Assembly (NCBI RefSeq): GCF_013402875.1
Contig: NZ_CP058579.1
Span: 558,001-622,000 of the forward strand
Reading direction: 5' to 3'
Length of the DNA stretch: 64,000 bases
DNA from: Halorarum salinum
GTDB lineage: Archaea; Halobacteriota; Halobacteria; Halobacteriales; Haloferacaceae
A model generated the notes under the pieces. It was given only the letters and a program-made list of their open reading frames with translations. It had not been told where the DNA came from and did no database searches. Position 1 is the stretch's first letter. Every line of letters begins with the position of its first letter. The position numbers and the translations under genes are program-made. This document shows positions 55,651 through 62,445 of the stretch, one piece after another.

Positions 55651-56876
55651 TGTCGCTCTACCGCCTCGCCCGGGACAACGAGCTGGACGAGCTCTGTGAG
55701 CGGGCCAAACACAGCGACAGCGCGGCGGTTCGGAGACGGGCCGCCCTGATGCTCGGCGACGTGAGCGACCCGGGGGACGACCGGACGATGGACGTGCTCG
55801 TCCACCTCGTCACCGAGGACGAGGACGACGCGGTCCGCGCCGGCGCCGTCGACGCGCTGGACGAACTCGGCACCGACGCCGTCGAACGGCTGCTGGCCCG
55901 GAAGGCCGGCGTGAACCCCGACGGCGCGAACTGGGTCGCCGTCCGGGCGTTCGCGCGGGCACTCTCGGCGGACGTCCCCGAGTTCCGGATGGCCGCCGCG
56001 AACGCGCTGGGCCGCATCGGCGACTCGGACGCCGTCGGCCCGCTGGTGAAACGGCTGGACGACCCGCACCCGCACGTCCGCGAGCGAGCGTGTCACGCGC
56101 TCGGGCGCATCGGCGACCCGCGGCCGGTCGGGGAACTGCAGGGGATGCTGGCGGACGACCACGGGGCGGTGAAGGCCGCCGCCGCGGACGCGCTCGGGAC
56201 CATCGCGTCCGGGCCGGCGCTCGCGGCCCTGCTCGATCTGCTCGAGGACGGGAACCCCTCCATCCGCCGGGTCGCCGCGAGCGCGCTCGGCAACGCCAGC
56301 AGCGCGAAGCCGGTGCCGCGGCTCGCTGCGGCGCTGGGCGACGAACACGACACGGTCCGCAGCGCGGCGGTGTTCTCGATCATCGAGCTGCTCGCGAACG
56401 CGCCGACGAAGCAGTCACACCAGGTCCGCGAGGCCGTCGTCTCCGAACTGCGGGAGGCCGACGACGACACGGTGCTCGGCCCGCTCGTGGAGATCCTCGA
56501 GGAGGCGTCCCAGGCCCGGCAGCGGCGCAACGCCGTCTGGTTCCTCGGGCGCGTCACCAGCGAACGGCCGCCGGACGCGGTGGTCGACGCGCTCGTCGAG
56601 GCGCTCTCGGACGACGATAAGATGACCGCCCAGTTCGCCGCGACGAGCGTCACCGAACTGGAGGGACACGGCGTCGAGTCGGCGCTCGTCGGCCTGCTGC
56701 GCGACGACGAGGCGCCGACGGACGCGCGGGCGAAGGCGGCGTTCGCGCTCGGCGACGTGGGCGGCTCCCGGGCCCGGGAGGAGCTCGACCGGATCACCGA
56801 CGCCGACGACGTGGACAGACGGATCAGGAAACGGGCGTTCGCTGCGCTCTCGAAGCTCGGAGGTGTGAGACGATGA
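55650..56876 (+). CDS. HEAT-repeat protein associated with chemotaxis
   Basis: The 408-residue protein is a solenoid of about ten HEAT/PBS-lyase-type repeats (for example VRRRAALMLGDVSDPGD, VRAGAVDALDELGT, FRMAAANALGRIGDSDAVGP, VRERACHALGRIGDPRPVGE, IRRVAASALGNASSAKPVPR). In Halobacterium salinarum a HEAT_PBS protein adjoining the chemotaxis genes interacts with CheF and the chemotaxis machinery. The overlap with cheR and cheF here fits that. The start is the ATG overlapping the cheR TAA. Confidence 0.87.
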   Translation: MSLYRLARDNELDELCERAKHSDSAAVRRRAALMLGDVSDPGDDRTMDVLVHLVTEDEDDAVRAGAVDALDELGTDAVERLLARKAGVNPDGANWVAVRAFARALSADVPEFRMAAANALGRIGDSDAVGPLVKRLDDPHPHVRERACHALGRIGDPRPVGELQGMLADDHGAVKAAAADALGTIASGPALAALLDLLEDGNPSIRRVAASALGNASSAKPVPRLAAALGDEHDTVRSAAVFSIIELLANAPTKQSHQVREAVVSELREADDDTVLGPLVEILEEASQARQRRNAVWFLGRVTSERPPDAVVDALVEALSDDDKMTAQFAATSVTELEGHGVESALVGLLRDDEAPTDARAKAAFALGDVGGSRAREELDRITDADDVDRRIRKRAFAALSKLGGVRR

Positions 56877-57748
56877 ACGACGGGAACGACGGGGAGTACA
56901 AGGTCGCGGACACCCACGGCCGGTTCGCACAGGCGGTCAAGAACGGCAGAAAGATCAACGACGTGAGCTGGACGAACGGTCGCATCATCCTCTCGAACCG
57001 GCGGATCGTCCTCGTGGGCAACGGGGGGAAACGGACCATCGCGCTCTCGGAGGTCGAGGGGATCGGCGGCCGGTACGACGCCAGCCAGGACATCGCGCGC
57101 GTCTCCAACTACGTGAGCCTCCGGCTCGGCGAGGAGGTGTTCCTCCTCACCTCGGAGGACCACGAGGCGTTCCGGACGGACCTCTACCGGGCGTTCCTCG
57201 ACCGCCGGGTCGTGTACGCCCGCCACCCGGCGGTCGCCGGCGGCGTCGTGCAGGACACCGAGTGGGAGCAGGCCCGCGTGAAGGTGGAGGCCGACGGCAT
57301 CAGCGTCGCCCAGCAGAGCGGCGCGTTCGTCAGGCTCGAGCTCGACGACATCGGCACGCTGGAGGAGGCCGAACGCACCGTTTTCGACGAGAAGCGGACC
57401 GTCATCGAGGCCGAGCACACCGACGAGGACGGCACCAGCGTGCGGACGTACCTCTCGGGCGAACCGTGGCACGTCGCGGTCATCAAGTCGTACCTCCGGC
57501 AGGGCCAACGGCAGGCCGAGGGCTCGGTCGAGTTGAGCGAGGCCGAACGCGAGGTGCTGATGGCGCTGTACTCGGGGGTCTCCTCCTTCGAGGTGCCGAA
57601 CTTCCTCGGCATGGACGTCGACCGCGTCGAGGAGACGTTCGAACGGCTCATCGAACTCGATGTGCTGGAGGAGGTGCGGACGCGACGGGAGGTGAACCTG
57701 ATGCCGCGGGGACGGAACATCGCGAGCGAGGCGATGAACGAGCAGTGA
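56873..57748 (+). CDS. cheF1: Chemotaxis-archaellum adaptor CheF (DUF439)
   Basis: The 291-residue protein (KVADTHGRFAQAVKNGRKIN, GRIILSNRRIVLVGNGGKRT, EVEGIGGRYDASQDIARVSN, ending DVLEEVRTRREVNLMPRGRN) matches the CheF family, which links phosphorylated CheY to the archaellum motor. The C-terminal 80 residues look like a winged-helix unit (SEAEREVLMALYSGVSSFEV). It overlaps the HEAT-repeat gene by four bases. A second paralogue lies at 60693-61559. Confidence 0.86.
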   Translation: MNDGNDGEYKVADTHGRFAQAVKNGRKINDVSWTNGRIILSNRRIVLVGNGGKRTIALSEVEGIGGRYDASQDIARVSNYVSLRLGEEVFLLTSEDHEAFRTDLYRAFLDRRVVYARHPAVAGGVVQDTEWEQARVKVEADGISVAQQSGAFVRLELDDIGTLEEAERTVFDEKRTVIEAEHTDEDGTSVRTYLSGEPWHVAVIKSYLRQGQRQAEGSVELSEAEREVLMALYSGVSSFEVPNFLGMDVDRVEETFERLIELDVLEEVRTRREVNLMPRGRNIASEAMNEQ

Positions 57749-58183
57749 TTTCGTGGGGTCGTGCGTTTTCGTGGTCGAGTCGACAGTTTCGCGAGTAGCG
57801 CTCTTCTCGGCGGCCTGGACCAGTGGACCGTGACAGAACCTAGTTCCCGAAAGTCCCCGCGGCTGTCGAGTCCGGAATCTGCCCGGTCGTCGGGGGACGG
57901 TTTCCGAAAGCCCCCGCGGGTGTCGGCTCGCGCGGCCGGCTGCGCTCCTCGCGCTCGTTACACTCGCGCTGCGGTGCTTGACCGCCCGTGCATCGCCGAC
58001 ACCCGCGGCCCCTTTCAGTCCCACCCCGCACCGCAAACCGCACCTCACCCTCCCCAGCCTCCTGCGCTCCTCGCCTCGGTCGTTCACTCCGTTCACTCCC
58101 TCTGCTGCGGTGCTCGTCCCTCGCGCGTCGTCGGCCGCGCACAGGGCGCGGCCGCCGCGCGCCAACCGGCTGATTCCCACCGC
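57749..58183. repeat. Intergenic region with repeat copy 3 and an internal inverted repeat
   Basis: No gene is supported in these 435 bases. From 57909 it repeats the block found at 32763: cgaaagcccccgcggg, then (from 58001) acccgcggcccctttcag, cctccccagcctcctgcgct and ggtgctcgtccctcgcgc. A 14-bp inverted repeat, ccgcgggtgtcggc (57914-57927) and gccgacacccgcgg (57995-58008), encloses about 67 bases absent from copy 1. A further partial cgaaagtccccgcgg starts at 57846. Confidence 0.75.
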
Positions 58184-58777
58184 TCAGCGATCCACCGACC
58201 CCTCGCCCGTCGCCACCGCGTCGTCGAACCACGGCTCCCGGCGCGCGTCGGCGAACGTCGTCGGCGGGTCCGGGTCGTCGGCGTACTCGCCGACCGACAG
58301 GTGCCACCAGCGCACGTCGCGCCACTCGCCGTGCTTGTACCCCACGCGCTCGAAGGTCCCCACCGGATCGAACCCCATCGCCTCGTGGAAGCCCGTGCTC
58401 GCTGGGTTCGGGAGCGCCGTCACGGCGTAGACGTTCCGGAACCCCTGTCGTCGGAGCACGGCGAACAGCGACTCGTACAGCCCCCGTGCGACCCCGGCGC
58501 GGCGCGCGTCCTCGCGGACGTACACCGAACTCTCGACCGACCAGCGGTACGCCCCCCGCCCCCGGTGCTCGTGGGCGCAGGCGTAGCCGAGAACCGAACC
58601 GTCGTCGCGGACGAGCCACGGGAGCCGGTCGACCGTGTCGGCGATCCGGCGGCGCATCGCCGCCTCGTCCGGCGGTTCCTCCTCGAACGAGACGCTCGTC
58701 TCCCCGACGAACGGCGCGTAGATGTCCCGGATGGGGGCGGCGTCGGCCGCGGTCGCGGGGCGGATGTTCGGGGACAC
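58184..58777 (-). CDS. GNAT acetyltransferase, phosphinothricin-acetyltransferase-like
   Basis: The 197-residue protein shows NIRPATAADAAPIRDIYAPF, TSVSFEEEPPDEAAMRRRIA, YRWSVESSVYVREDARRAGV (acetyl-CoA loop), VYAVTALPNPASTGFHEAMG and FDPVGTFERVGYKHGEWRDV, the pattern of the Pat/YncA-like GNAT subgroup that acetylates amino-acid-like toxins or methionine derivatives. The GTG start is preferred over an upstream ATG because a TATA-like TTTTTC lies about 26 bases above it. Confidence 0.84.
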   Translation of the reverse strand: MSPNIRPATAADAAPIRDIYAPFVGETSVSFEEEPPDEAAMRRRIADTVDRLPWLVRDDGSVLGYACAHEHRGRGAYRWSVESSVYVREDARRAGVARGLYESLFAVLRRQGFRNVYAVTALPNPASTGFHEAMGFDPVGTFERVGYKHGEWRDVRWWHLSVGEYADDPDPPTTFADARREPWFDDAVATGEGSVDR

Positions 58778-58966
58778 GTCCGTCGGTGGCGGCCGGGAGA
58801 GAAAAAGCCGCCCCCCACGTCCGATTCCGTCCGTCACCCCGTCAGAATCCATGAGTCGCCCCCACCTGTCGCTCGCAACGGATGCGACGCCCTCCGGTCG
58901 CGCGACGGTACGCCGTCGCCGTTCGTCCTTGGCCACTTCGGAGTCCGGTTCGGAGGGGTGGGACGA

Positions 58967-59070
58967 CTACGTGTTCACCGACTCGATGCGCTGGCTCACG
59001 GCGAGGCGACCCTTCGCGGTGAGCCCCGTCCCGGTCCCGGCGTCCACGAACCCGTCGGAAGTCAGTCGGG
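58967..59070 (-). pseudogene. Remnant of a CheF-family 3' end
   Basis: On the minus strand this stretch reads LTSDGFVDAGTGTGLTAKGR then LAVSQRIESVNT and a TAG stop, clearly homologous to the last residues of the full cheF at 60693 (GIVVDTETGTELTAKGRVVV, GQRLESVNT, stop). No further CheF homology continues upstream. It is therefore a detached, diverged 3' end of a cheF gene lying on the far side of the carotenoid oxygenase gene and in the same orientation as the intact copy. Confidence 0.8.
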
Positions 59071-59205
59071 GCATCCCGGGTACAACCACCGATGTCGGTG
59101 GACGACGCAGAACCGATAGCGCTCGCACGAGGGAGGCGACGTCACCGTGCCCATCGACGGAGTCGAGGGCAGCAACTTGATGGAGCGAGACGACGAAAAC
59201 CGGGC

Positions 59206-60630
59206 ATGTCGGCGCCCTACGCTCCGGGGTTCCGTTCGTTGACGAACGAGGTCACCGACCACCGCCCCCCGGTGGAGGGATCGATCCCCGAGTGGCTCTC
59301 GGGGACGCTCGTTCGCAACGGACCCGGTCGCTTCGACGTCGGGTCCGAACGCCTCACCCACTGGTTCGACGGGTTGGCGATGCTCCGTCGCTACGCCTTC
59401 GACGACGGCGAGATCACCTACTCGAACAGGTTCCTCCGGACGAACGCGTACGAGGACGCGTTGCACGGGACGCTAACCGGGCAGTTCGCCACCGACACGC
59501 GCGGCTGGCGGAAGGTCCTCTCGTGGCTCCGGTCGCTCGGGCCGCCGGACAGCACGGACAACGCGAACGTCCACGTCGCCCGTCTCGACGGCGAGTACGT
59601 CGCGCTCACCGAAGCCCCGCGCCGGGTCGCCTTCGATCCGCGGACGCTCGGAACGCGCGGGGAGTTCACGTTCGAGGACGAACTGACCGAACACGTCGCG
59701 ACCGCGCATCTCGTCGACGACCCCCACCGCCGGGAGTGGGTGGGGTTCGCGACCCAGTTCGGGCGGCGGCCCCGGTACCACCTCTACCGGATTCCCGTGG
59801 GGAGCAGGTCGCGTGAGGTGATCGCGTCGATCGACGCCGACGGGCCGGCGTACGTCCACGATTGCAGCGTCACTGCCGACCACGTCGTCGTCGTCGAGAC
59901 GCCGCTGGTGATCTCCGTGCTGCGGGCGCTCAGCCCGTTCTCCGAGGGTGTACTCGACGCGTTCGACTGGCGGCCCGAGCGGGGGACGCGCGTGCTGGTC
60001 GTCGATCGGGAGACCGGCGACCTGGTGGCCGACCCGACGCTCCCGCCCGCGTTCGTGTTCCACCACGTCAACGCCTACGCCGACGGCGACACGGTGGTAC
60101 TGGACCTCGTCGAGTACCCGAACGCGGACGTCGTCGAGGCGATGCGGCTGGACCGTCTCGCCGGTGACGGGTCCGATGCCGTGTCGGGGTTCCCGGACGT
60201 TCCGGACGGGTACCCGGTACGGTATCGAATCGACACGCGACGCGGCATCGTCGATCGCGCTCGACTCCATCCGACTGGGATGGAGCTGCCGCGCGTCCCA
60301 CGTCGCGTCGTCGGCCGCCGGCATCGCTACGCGTACGGTCAGGGGACGGACCGCGACGGCGCGAACGGCCTCGTGAAACTCGACTGCGAGGCCGGAACGA
60401 CGCGCGAGTGGTGGGAGCGGTCGGTGTTCGTGGAGGAACCGGTTCCCGTACGGCGACCGGGCGGGACCGACGAGGACGACGGCGTGGTGGTGGCGACGGC
60501 GCTCGACGCCGACCGCGAGCGGACGCTCCTCCTCGTCTTCGACGCCGCGACGCTCGACCTCCTGGCCCGGACGGTCCTCCCGCACGCGGAGCCGTTCGGC
60601 TTCCACGGCCGGTTCTTCGCGGAGGCGTGA
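59206..60630 (+). CDS. Carotenoid cleavage oxygenase-family protein
   Basis: The 474-residue protein has the RPE65/carotenoid oxygenase pattern: SLTNEVTDHRPPVEGSIPEW, LSGTLVRNGPGRFDVGSERL, THWFDGLAMLRRYAFDDGEI, TDNANVHVARLDGEYVALTE, PAYVHDCSVTADHVVVVETP, FVFHHVNAYADGDTVVLDLV and the final HAEPFGFHGRFFAEA. His residues in the four blades (for example ATAHLVDD, VHDCSV, FHHVNA, PFGFHG) could hold the catalytic iron. It may cleave a carotenoid, for instance to retinal. The start at MSAPYAPGF follows a noncoding gap. Confidence 0.85.
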   Translation: MSAPYAPGFRSLTNEVTDHRPPVEGSIPEWLSGTLVRNGPGRFDVGSERLTHWFDGLAMLRRYAFDDGEITYSNRFLRTNAYEDALHGTLTGQFATDTRGWRKVLSWLRSLGPPDSTDNANVHVARLDGEYVALTEAPRRVAFDPRTLGTRGEFTFEDELTEHVATAHLVDDPHRREWVGFATQFGRRPRYHLYRIPVGSRSREVIASIDADGPAYVHDCSVTADHVVVVETPLVISVLRALSPFSEGVLDAFDWRPERGTRVLVVDRETGDLVADPTLPPAFVFHHVNAYADGDTVVLDLVEYPNADVVEAMRLDRLAGDGSDAVSGFPDVPDGYPVRYRIDTRRGIVDRARLHPTGMELPRVPRRVVGRRHRYAYGQGTDRDGANGLVKLDCEAGTTREWWERSVFVEEPVPVRRPGGTDEDDGVVVATALDADRERTLLLVFDAATLDLLARTVLPHAEPFGFHGRFFAEA

Positions 60631-60692
60631 TTCCCGATCGGGGCGGTCCGCTCGCCGATGGAACGGAACCTGCGGACCGGAGTCCGGACACC

Positions 60693-61559
60693 TCAGGTGT
60701 TCACCGACTCCAGCCGCTGGCCCACGACGACCCGGCCCTTCGCGGTCAACTCGGTCCCCGTCTCCGTGTCCACGACGATTCCCTGCTCGGCGAGGCCGTT
60801 CAACAGCATGGTGAGCCGCTGGGGGTCGATGTCCACGATGGCCGACAGCGAGACGCCCTCGCCCGCCGAGTAGAGCGAGACGAGCACCTCCAGTTCGTCC
60901 TCGCCGAGGCTGACGTCCTCGAGTTCCTCCTTCACGTCGGCGTACCGGAGCCGGATGTACCGCCCGAGCAGGTTCGTCTTCCGCCCGGAGCCGATGCCGA
61001 CCTCGGAGGTGACCGCGGTGCCGTCGTCGATGTGCCGGAAGGTGACCACCGGGCGCGGGCCGTTGCCGAGGTCGCGGTCCTCGCGCTCGACGGCGACGAC
61101 CGTCTCCAGGTCGACCGTGAACGGGTCCGTCTCGCGGACGAACGTGAGTTTGCCGTGTTCGAGTCGGAGCGACGCCCGCTCGGAGGACGCGTCCGTGACC
61201 CGACCGCCCCGCCGCGCCGGGTGGCGAACGAGCGCGGGCGTCTCGTTGAGCAGCACCTTGAACAGCACCGTGGCGAACCGGTCGATGTTCGTGTCCGAGC
61301 CCTCGACGGCGGCGACCCGCCGCTCGTCGTCGACGCGGTAGGCGAGGGTGACGGTGTCGTCGAAGTAGGGCGCCATCTCCGGGGGGACCTGCCCCACCTT
61401 CACGTCGAACACCGACGAGAGGGGGACCGTCTCCCGCAGGTCGTCGGTCGCGAGCACGAGCCGTCGCTCGCTGAGCAGGATGCGGCCCGTCGGGGGCTCG
61501 CCCGCGACGCCGGCCGCGAAGAAGCGGCCGACGAAGTCCGCGACGACCGACTCGCTCAT
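60693..61559 (-). CDS. cheF2: Second CheF-family chemotaxis adaptor
   Basis: The 288-residue protein is a CheF paralogue of the product at 56873: VADFVGRFFAAGVAGEPPTG, RILLSERRLVLATDDLRETV, PLSSVFDVKVGQVPPEMAPY, the middle VSLGEDELEVLVSLYSAGEG and the end LTMLLNGLAEQGIVVDTETG, then TELTAKGRVVVGQRLESVNT. The two CheF proteins in Halobacterium salinarum both connect the chemotaxis system to the archaellum, though one is dominant. It is transcribed opposite to the carotenoid oxygenase and hisA genes. Confidence 0.86.
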   Translation of the reverse strand: MSESVVADFVGRFFAAGVAGEPPTGRILLSERRLVLATDDLRETVPLSSVFDVKVGQVPPEMAPYFDDTVTLAYRVDDERRVAAVEGSDTNIDRFATVLFKVLLNETPALVRHPARRGGRVTDASSERASLRLEHGKLTFVRETDPFTVDLETVVAVEREDRDLGNGPRPVVTFRHIDDGTAVTSEVGIGSGRKTNLLGRYIRLRYADVKEELEDVSLGEDELEVLVSLYSAGEGVSLSAIVDIDPQRLTMLLNGLAEQGIVVDTETGTELTAKGRVVVGQRLESVNT

Positions 61560-61716: not shown

Positions 61717-62445
61717 ATGACGCAGTTCCCCGAGTTCGAGGTCGTTCCGGCGGTGGACGTGAAGGACGGCGAGACCGTCCAGCTCGTCGGGGGCGAGCCG
61801 GGAACCGGCTCGCGCCACGGCGACCCGGTCGAGGTCGCCGAGCGCTGGGTCCGGGAGGGCGCGCGGACGCTCCACCTCGTCGACCTCGACGGCGCGTTCG
61901 TCGGCGAGCGGGAGAACGCGCCCGCACTCGAGGCCATCGTCGACGCCGTCGGCGACGAGGTCGGCCTCCAGGTGGGCGGCGGCATCCGCTCGGCGGGCGA
62001 CGCGGCCGCGCTGCTCGACCGCGGCGTCGACCGCGTGATCCTCGGCACCGCCGCGGTCGAGAACCCCGACGTCGTCGCCGAGATATCGGCGGAGTACCCG
62101 GGGAGCGTGATGGTCAGCCTCGACGCGAAGGACGGCGAGGTCGTCGTCTCCGGCTGGACCGAGGGCACCGGGCTCGACCCCGCCGAGGCGGCGGGCCGCT
62201 ACGAGGAGCTCGGCGCCGGCGCCGTCCTCTTCACCGACGTGGACGTCGAGGGACGGCTCGAAGGGGTGAACCGCGAGGCGGTCGAGCGCGTCGTCGACGC
62301 CGTGGAGATCCCGGTCGTCGCCTCCGGCGGGGTCGCCTCGCTGGCGGACGTGCGGGAACTGCGCGAGGCCGGCGCCGCCGCGGTCGTGGTCGGCACCGCC
62401 CTGTACGAGGGGCGGTTCACGCTCCGCGAGGCGCTGGACGCCTGA
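61717..62445 (+). CDS. hisA: Phosphoribosylformimino-5-aminoimidazole carboxamide ribotide isomerase
   Basis: The 242-residue TIM barrel shows FEVVPAVDVKDGETVQLVGG, LHLVDLDGAFVGERENAPAL, VGLQVGGGIRSAGDAAALLD, RVILGTAAVENPDVVAEISA, GAVLFTDVDVEGRLEGVNRE and PVVASGGVASLADVRELREA. The N-terminal Asp of VPAVDVKDG and the Asp of FTDVDVEG are the catalytic acid/base pair. It performs the fourth step of histidine synthesis. Histidine gene hisB follows 392 bases downstream. Confidence 0.95.
   Translation: MTQFPEFEVVPAVDVKDGETVQLVGGEPGTGSRHGDPVEVAERWVREGARTLHLVDLDGAFVGERENAPALEAIVDAVGDEVGLQVGGGIRSAGDAAALLDRGVDRVILGTAAVENPDVVAEISAEYPGSVMVSLDAKDGEVVVSGWTEGTGLDPAEAAGRYEELGAGAVLFTDVDVEGRLEGVNREAVERVVDAVEIPVVASGGVASLADVRELREAGAAAVVVGTALYEGRFTLREALDA

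What the first reader, a model, noticed from the sequence alone, without database searches (positions are those of the whole stretch)
58967..61559. Carotenoid oxygenase gene bracketed by two cheF 3' ends
A diverged fragment of the last 30 or so codons of cheF (58967-59070) lies in the same orientation as the intact cheF2 (60693-61559), and the carotenoid oxygenase gene (59206-60630) sits exactly between. Seen directly: both ends encode ...LTAKGR..V.QR.ESVNT then stop. This looks like either insertion that duplicated or displaced a cheF end, or replacement of an older cheF by a newer copy together with the oxygenase. Carotenoid cleavage yields retinal, the cofactor of sensory rhodopsins that signal through the chemotaxis genes next door, so linkage may be functional.
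Basis: partly seen in the sequence, partly recalled or inferred. Interest (0 to 1): 0.6.

Follow-up and report, generated by a model that had tools for sequence, protein, structure and literature searches.

The report
Gene-insertion scar beside archaeal taxis genes
A carotenoid-cutting enzyme gene that has moved recently between related salt-loving archaea sits in a gap between two chemotaxis genes, and a decayed spare end of one of those genes marks the scar; there is no sign that it feeds a light-sensing rhodopsin, because none was found in this genome.

Summary
Window 58967-59070 (minus strand) is a decayed copy of the cheF2 3' end: 80% identity over 79 ungapped bp, the only other match to a cheF2-tail profile in the window (E 5e-11). 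It lies beside a GNAT gene, where relative G022 has its intact cheF2 end, so the order cheF1> <GNAT <cheF2 is inferred ancestral. The carotenoid oxygenase (CCO) unit, 59153 to about 60683, is a recently exchanged block: synonymous divergence from congener G103 is 0.07, against 0.32-0.50 for six neighbouring genes, and the tract ends at the cheF2 stop codon (60659-60705). The intact cheF2 has ordinary within-genus divergence, so it is not a new copy that came with the CCO from a G103-like donor. The junction of the convergent cheF1 and cheF2 is a variable cargo slot in relatives. The retinal/sensory-rhodopsin idea fails here: the 99.8%-complete genome has no detectable rhodopsin, Brp/Blh or CrtY. 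Best reading: an accessory CCO gene inserted in a permissive slot, leaving a displaced or duplicated cheF2 end. How the scar formed is inferred, and the 81-bp remnant cannot settle it. Ordinary mosaic genome evolution; modest interest.

The parts
56873..57748 (+). cheF1, left border of the slot; convergent with cheF2
   Evidence: PF04283 CheF-arch, 232 bits; order cheR-HEAT-cheF1 as in relatives
58184..58852 (-). GNAT acetyltransferase, close to ArsN1b-type N-acetyltransferases; inferred older resident of the slot
   Evidence: PF13420/PF00583; NF040504 205 bits, just under its 210 cut-off; ortholog in the same place in G022 (68% aa; dS 0.51, like its neighbours); of the other five genomes searched only G103 gave a match, weak and 28% identical
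58967..59070 (-). decayed copy of the cheF2 3' end (27 codons firm, up to about 35), ending in TAG
59071..59152 (.). junction of unknown origin between the remnant and the CCO block
   Evidence: no convincing match in ten searched genomes; fold no better than shuffles
59153..60683 (+). exchanged CCO block: 53 bp upstream, CCO gene, and most of the spacer up to the cheF2 stop
   Evidence: homology to G103 begins at 59153; change-point 60683, interval 60659-60705, 2 delta lnL 68.6
59206..60630 (+). carotenoid cleavage oxygenase gene, RPE65 family, 474 aa, four metal-ligand His conserved (168, 218, 286, 467)
   Evidence: PF03055 377 bits; best solved relative 6vcf; His positions
60693..61559 (-). 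intact cheF2
   Evidence: PF04283 196 bits; dS 0.31-0.38 to congeners; normal position in the gene tree
61717..62445 (+). hisA, right-hand conserved neighbour used as a divergence yardstick
   Evidence: dS 0.50 to G103

Best explanation
The junction between the convergent genes cheF1 and cheF2 is a permissive slot where haloarchaea of this family gain and lose single accessory genes. The inferred ancestral order here was cheF1> <GNAT <cheF2. A carotenoid cleavage oxygenase unit (its own upstream stretch, gene and short 3' spacer) entered immediately downstream of the cheF2 stop codon. The most likely route is homologous pairing of incoming DNA on the cheF2/hisA side, with a non-homologous join on the other side inside or near the old cheF2 3' end. 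That left about 100 bp of a cheF2 end stranded between GNAT and the oxygenase, where it is decaying. The oxygenase unit has been exchanged among species of the genus much more recently than the flanking genes diverged. The enzyme is probably an apocarotenoid or carotenoid cleaver unrelated to rhodopsin in this organism. Shown: remnant, synteny, younger age of the CCO block, its right edge, slot variability, absence of detectable opsins. Inferred: the recombination route, the order of events and the substrate.
For: Remnant homology. GNAT-cheF2 order in G022, with GNAT at vertical divergence. CCO dS 0.07 and third-position identity 94.5% to G103, against dS 0.32-0.50 and 68-79% for cheR, HEAT, cheF1, cheF2, hisA and hisB. 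Left edge of shared homology at 59153, right change-point 60659-60705 at the cheF2 stop. The CCO/cheF2 junction is shared by G000 and G103, while the left flanks differ. The slot is empty (19-103 bp) in seven relatives tabulated; others carry GNAT, a PHO4-type transporter, DUF7504 proteins or a small secreted-looking protein. CCO is absent from G102, G022, G016, G010 and G014. Recombination between species is described as frequent in haloarchaea (review PMC4500145). Homology-facilitated illegitimate recombination as a model that leaves displaced 3' ends (PMC5361080).
Against: The remnant is no closer to the present cheF2 tail than to those of G103 or G102, and 81 bp cannot place it (R+G000 p-AU 0.275). 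The cheF2 tail of G000 shows no excess similarity to G103, so a donor tail from a G103-like source is not seen. G103 has no GNAT in the slot and no remnant, which needs a further deletion or an independent insertion. The CCO dN/dS of 0.42 is high for a gene under steady purifying selection.
Confidence: 0.6

Rival explanations
1. Single old insertion: the CCO entered the slot in the genus ancestor and duplicated the cheF2 end; G103 later deleted GNAT and remnant, G102 lost the CCO, and the CCO block alone was later homogenised between lineages by homologous replacement.
For: The CCO/cheF2 junction is shared by G000 and G103; the remnant is about equally distant from all three congeners' tails.
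Against: Needs several extra losses; the 53 bp upstream and probably the 3' spacer are young too.
Confidence: 0.25
2. Replacement: CCO and cheF2 (or its tail) arrived together from another congener, and the remnant is the end of the native cheF2.
For: The remnant lies in the native position beside GNAT; third-position difference from G102 rises from 0.14-0.26 to 0.36 in the last 36 codons of cheF2.
Against: The tail is the most variable segment at third positions in most pairs; cheF2 is at ordinary divergence and the CCO tract ends at its stop codon.
Confidence: 0.2
3. Functional linkage: the CCO makes retinal for sensory rhodopsins that signal through the adjacent che genes.
For: Across 170 family genomes CCO and rhodopsin co-occur more than expected (76 of 88 against 51 of 82, Fisher P 4e-4, not corrected for kinship). 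A CCO is convergent with a cheF gene in Halonotius A07HN63 and about 4 kb from cheW in Halohasta salina.
Against: No microbial rhodopsin, Brp/Blh or CrtY found in this genome; no rhodopsin or Brp/Blh in either congener. Eleven CCO-bearing genomes lack both rhodopsin and Blh. Nearly all other CCO loci compared have no che gene in the held flanks. The related Nitrosotalea enzyme is reported inactive on beta-carotene (PMC9227343).
Confidence: 0.04

Closest known systems
Displaced 3' ends left by gene-module insertion (V. cholerae T6SS effector modules and Rhs loci; PMC5361080)
   Same: An incoming module anchored in homologous sequence pushes back or strands the old 3' end beside it; proposed route is homology-facilitated illegitimate recombination.
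   Different: Here the stranded end belongs to a chemotaxis gene next to unrelated cargo, only about 100 bp is left and it is decaying; the homologous anchor was not demonstrated.
Interspecies homologous replacement in haloarchaea (PMC4500145)
   Same: A short block with much lower divergence than its flanks, exchanged between species.
   Different: The block is an accessory gene in an indel slot rather than a core allele.
Carotenoid cleavage dioxygenase of Nitrosotalea devanaterra (NdCCD, 6vcf)
   Same: Closest solved sequence, near full-length match (346 bits), four His ligands aligned.
   Different: About 38% identical at the Nitrosotalea devanaterra locus (L156); substrate of the haloarchaeal enzyme unknown.
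cheF pair of Halobacterium salinarum (OE2402F/OE2404R; PMC2666748)
   Same: Adjacent cheF homologues next to a HEAT-repeat gene in the che region; deletion of the second homologue has a weak phenotype.
   Different: There the two genes are adjacent; here a GNAT, a remnant and a CCO lie between them.

Membership tests
RPE65 / carotenoid cleavage oxygenase family | Full-length PF03055 domain | tested here: met
   377 bits, profile 1-468 of 469
RPE65 / carotenoid cleavage oxygenase family | Four conserved metal-binding histidines | tested here: met
   His 168, 218, 286, 467, aligned with 6vcf
RPE65 / carotenoid cleavage oxygenase family | Cleavage of a carotenoid or apocarotenoid | not testable with these tools
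   needs an enzyme assay
Retinal supply for sensory rhodopsin | A rhodopsin in the same genome | tested here: not met
   PF01036 not found in G000, G102 and G103, found in 127 of 170 family genomes; the heliorhodopsin search was negative but had no positive control
Retinal supply for sensory rhodopsin | Beta-carotene precursor route (CrtY) | tested here: not met
   CrtY of G010 finds orthologs in rhodopsin-bearing relatives, none in G000; only a UbiA-Lycopene_cyc fusion is present
Stranded 3' end by homology-facilitated illegitimate recombination | Truncated duplicate 3' end beside an inserted module | tested here: met
Stranded 3' end by homology-facilitated illegitimate recombination | Homologous anchor at one edge with donor sequence in it | tested here: inconclusive
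   CCO tract ends at the cheF2 stop; tail shows no excess similarity to G103
CheF-arch | PF04283 domain in the intact gene | tested here: met

The most novel reading that the evidence does not exclude
The oxygenase makes an apocarotenoid that acts as a taxis cue or modulates the chemotaxis machinery without any rhodopsin, and its neighbourhood to cheF, seen also in a Halonotius lineage and, more loosely, in Halohasta, is selected.
Probability: 0.05. Interest if true: 0.65.

Novelty: new member of a known kind. Interest (0 to 1): 0.27.

Why it matters
It is a readable example of how an accessory gene enters and moves among species at a fixed chromosomal slot in haloarchaea and leaves a scar in a chemotaxis gene. 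It also shows that RPE65-type oxygenases occur in haloarchaeal genomes with no detectable opsin, so their role there is not simply retinal supply: a testable open question.

Tried and rejected
Remnant as chance similarity: rejected. cheF2 as a new copy from the same donor as the CCO: rejected for a G103-like donor. Retinal and sensory-rhodopsin linkage: rejected for this genome. Repeat or hairpin at the junction as a mobile-element end: no direct repeats, fold z-score 0.03, and no strong second copy of the junction in ten genomes. Placing the remnant on a tree: unresolved. CCO near che genes in other genera: two further clear cases among roughly 80 named loci; by my rough reckoning near the chance level, not formally tested.

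Full report
What was checked. The finding says that a fragment of a cheF 3' end lies at 58967-59070, in the same orientation as the intact cheF2 at 60693-61559, with a carotenoid oxygenase gene between them. All three parts are there. Both cheF ends are on the minus strand and the oxygenase is on the plus strand. The two ends align without gaps over 79 bp with a score of 78, while the best of 500 random window segments scored 44. A profile made from 16 cheF2 tails finds only cheF2 and the remnant among 918 frames of the window. The firm part is the last 27 codons.

Where the window lies. It belongs to a 4.26-Mb, 99.8% complete genome, G000. Oxygenase sequences of several relatives in the same family are identical to those of named Halorubrum, Haloplanus, Halonotius and Halalkalirubrum records, so the family is Haloferacaceae (inference). 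The genus was not named; two congeners are held, G102 and G103.

Synteny. In G022, of a neighbouring genus, the order is cheF1> <GNAT <cheF2 followed by hisA. In G016 and similar genomes it is cheF1> <cheF2. In G103 it is cheF1> CCO> <cheF2, with no GNAT in the slot and no remnant; G102 has no CCO and its cheF2 is not next to cheF1. In the window it is cheF1> <GNAT <remnant CCO> <cheF2. The remnant therefore occupies the place, beside GNAT, where G022 keeps its cheF2 3' end. The GNAT gene is at a synonymous distance of 0.51 from its G022 ortholog, while the neighbouring genes are at 0.36-0.52, which fits an old resident. That the G022 order is ancestral is inference from synteny.

Age of the oxygenase block. 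Between G000 and G103, synonymous divergence is 0.35, 0.37, 0.38, 0.38, 0.50 and 0.32 for cheR, the HEAT gene, cheF1, cheF2, hisA and hisB, but 0.07 for the CCO. Shared homology starts at 59153, 53 bp before the CCO start. A change-point analysis on third positions and spacers puts the right edge at 60683, interval 60659-60705, which spans the cheF2 stop codon. The block was therefore exchanged long after the flanking genes diverged. cheF2 groups with its congeners in a normal gene tree, so it did not come with the CCO from a G103-like donor. The remnant (81 bp used) falls with the genus without firm support and is otherwise unplaced; grouping it with the present G000 tail is not rejected (p-AU 0.275).

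The slot. The junction of cheF1 and cheF2 differs among relatives: 19-103 bp and without a gene in seven of those tabulated; a GNAT in G022; a PHO4-family transporter in G017; a small secreted-looking protein in G013 and G015 (no Pfam match for the one scanned); related-looking proteins of 272-284 aa in five genomes of the Haloplanus group, DUF7504 in the two scanned; a CCO in G103. A gap between two convergent genes is a place where inserts disrupt neither gene, which by itself can explain why the CCO is next to cheF.

How it most likely arose. Incoming DNA with the CCO paired with the recipient on the cheF2/hisA side and was joined without homology on the other side, stranding a cheF2 end. 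This is akin to the model proposed for displaced 3' ends in Vibrio T6SS clusters (PMC5361080), and haloarchaea are described as recombining readily between species (PMC4500145). The step itself is not shown: the cheF2 tail carries no detectable donor signature, and the 82-bp junction has no identified source. An older single insertion followed by deletions and later exchange of the CCO remains a serious rival, as does replacement from a third congener. These three share the main claim (an accessory CCO block in a permissive slot, with a stranded cheF2 end) and differ in the order of events.

Function. The CCO is a full-length RPE65-family protein with all four metal-ligand histidines and is closest among solved proteins to the Nitrosotalea enzyme, reported to have no activity on beta-carotene (PMC9227343). 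This genome and both congeners have no detectable microbial rhodopsin and no Brp/Blh. CrtY was not found in G000, whose only lycopene-cyclase-like domain is fused to a UbiA domain. The heliorhodopsin search was negative but without a positive control. Across the family the CCO co-occurs with rhodopsin more often than expected, but eleven genomes carry it with neither rhodopsin nor Blh. So in this organism the enzyme does not serve a recognised sensory rhodopsin; cleavage of an acyclic carotenoid or apocarotenoid is the likelier role and is untested.

Counter-evidence kept in view. A Halonotius lineage has a CCO convergent with a CheF1-like gene, and Halohasta salina has one about 4 kb from cheW. 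Most other CCO loci compared show no che gene in the held flanks. Co-selection is therefore not excluded but is not needed.

Noticed in passing
window 57749-58183; also 32778, 35363, 14020: Non-coding stretch after cheF1 holds CCCTTTCAGTCCCACC, a 16-mer found 4 times in the window with up to 2 mismatches (0.01 expected) and also in a congener locus, L033: a dispersed repeat.
   Followed up: partly
L095 6001-7374 and 7456-8319: In uncultured archaeon A07HN63 (Halonotius group) a CCO is convergent with a CheF1-like gene: an independent CCO-cheF neighbourhood.
   Followed up: partly
L088 1811-2275 and 5986-7419: In Halohasta salina a CCO lies about 4 kb from cheW and cheB.
   Followed up: partly
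L164 532-1806 (G000:C1 near 1487258): UbiA-like prenyltransferase fused to a lycopene-cyclase domain, the only such domain found in this genome.
   Followed up: partly
L039 (G000:C1:3957330-3957746): Third CheF-type match elsewhere in the genome, covering profile positions 2-152 in a 464-aa frame.
   Followed up: no
L167 8339-9733: G103 has a second, highly diverged CCO (38% identical) at another locus.
   Followed up: partly
L033 4491-6176: In G102 cheF2 is followed by a PAS/MCP transducer gene instead of cheF1.
   Followed up: no
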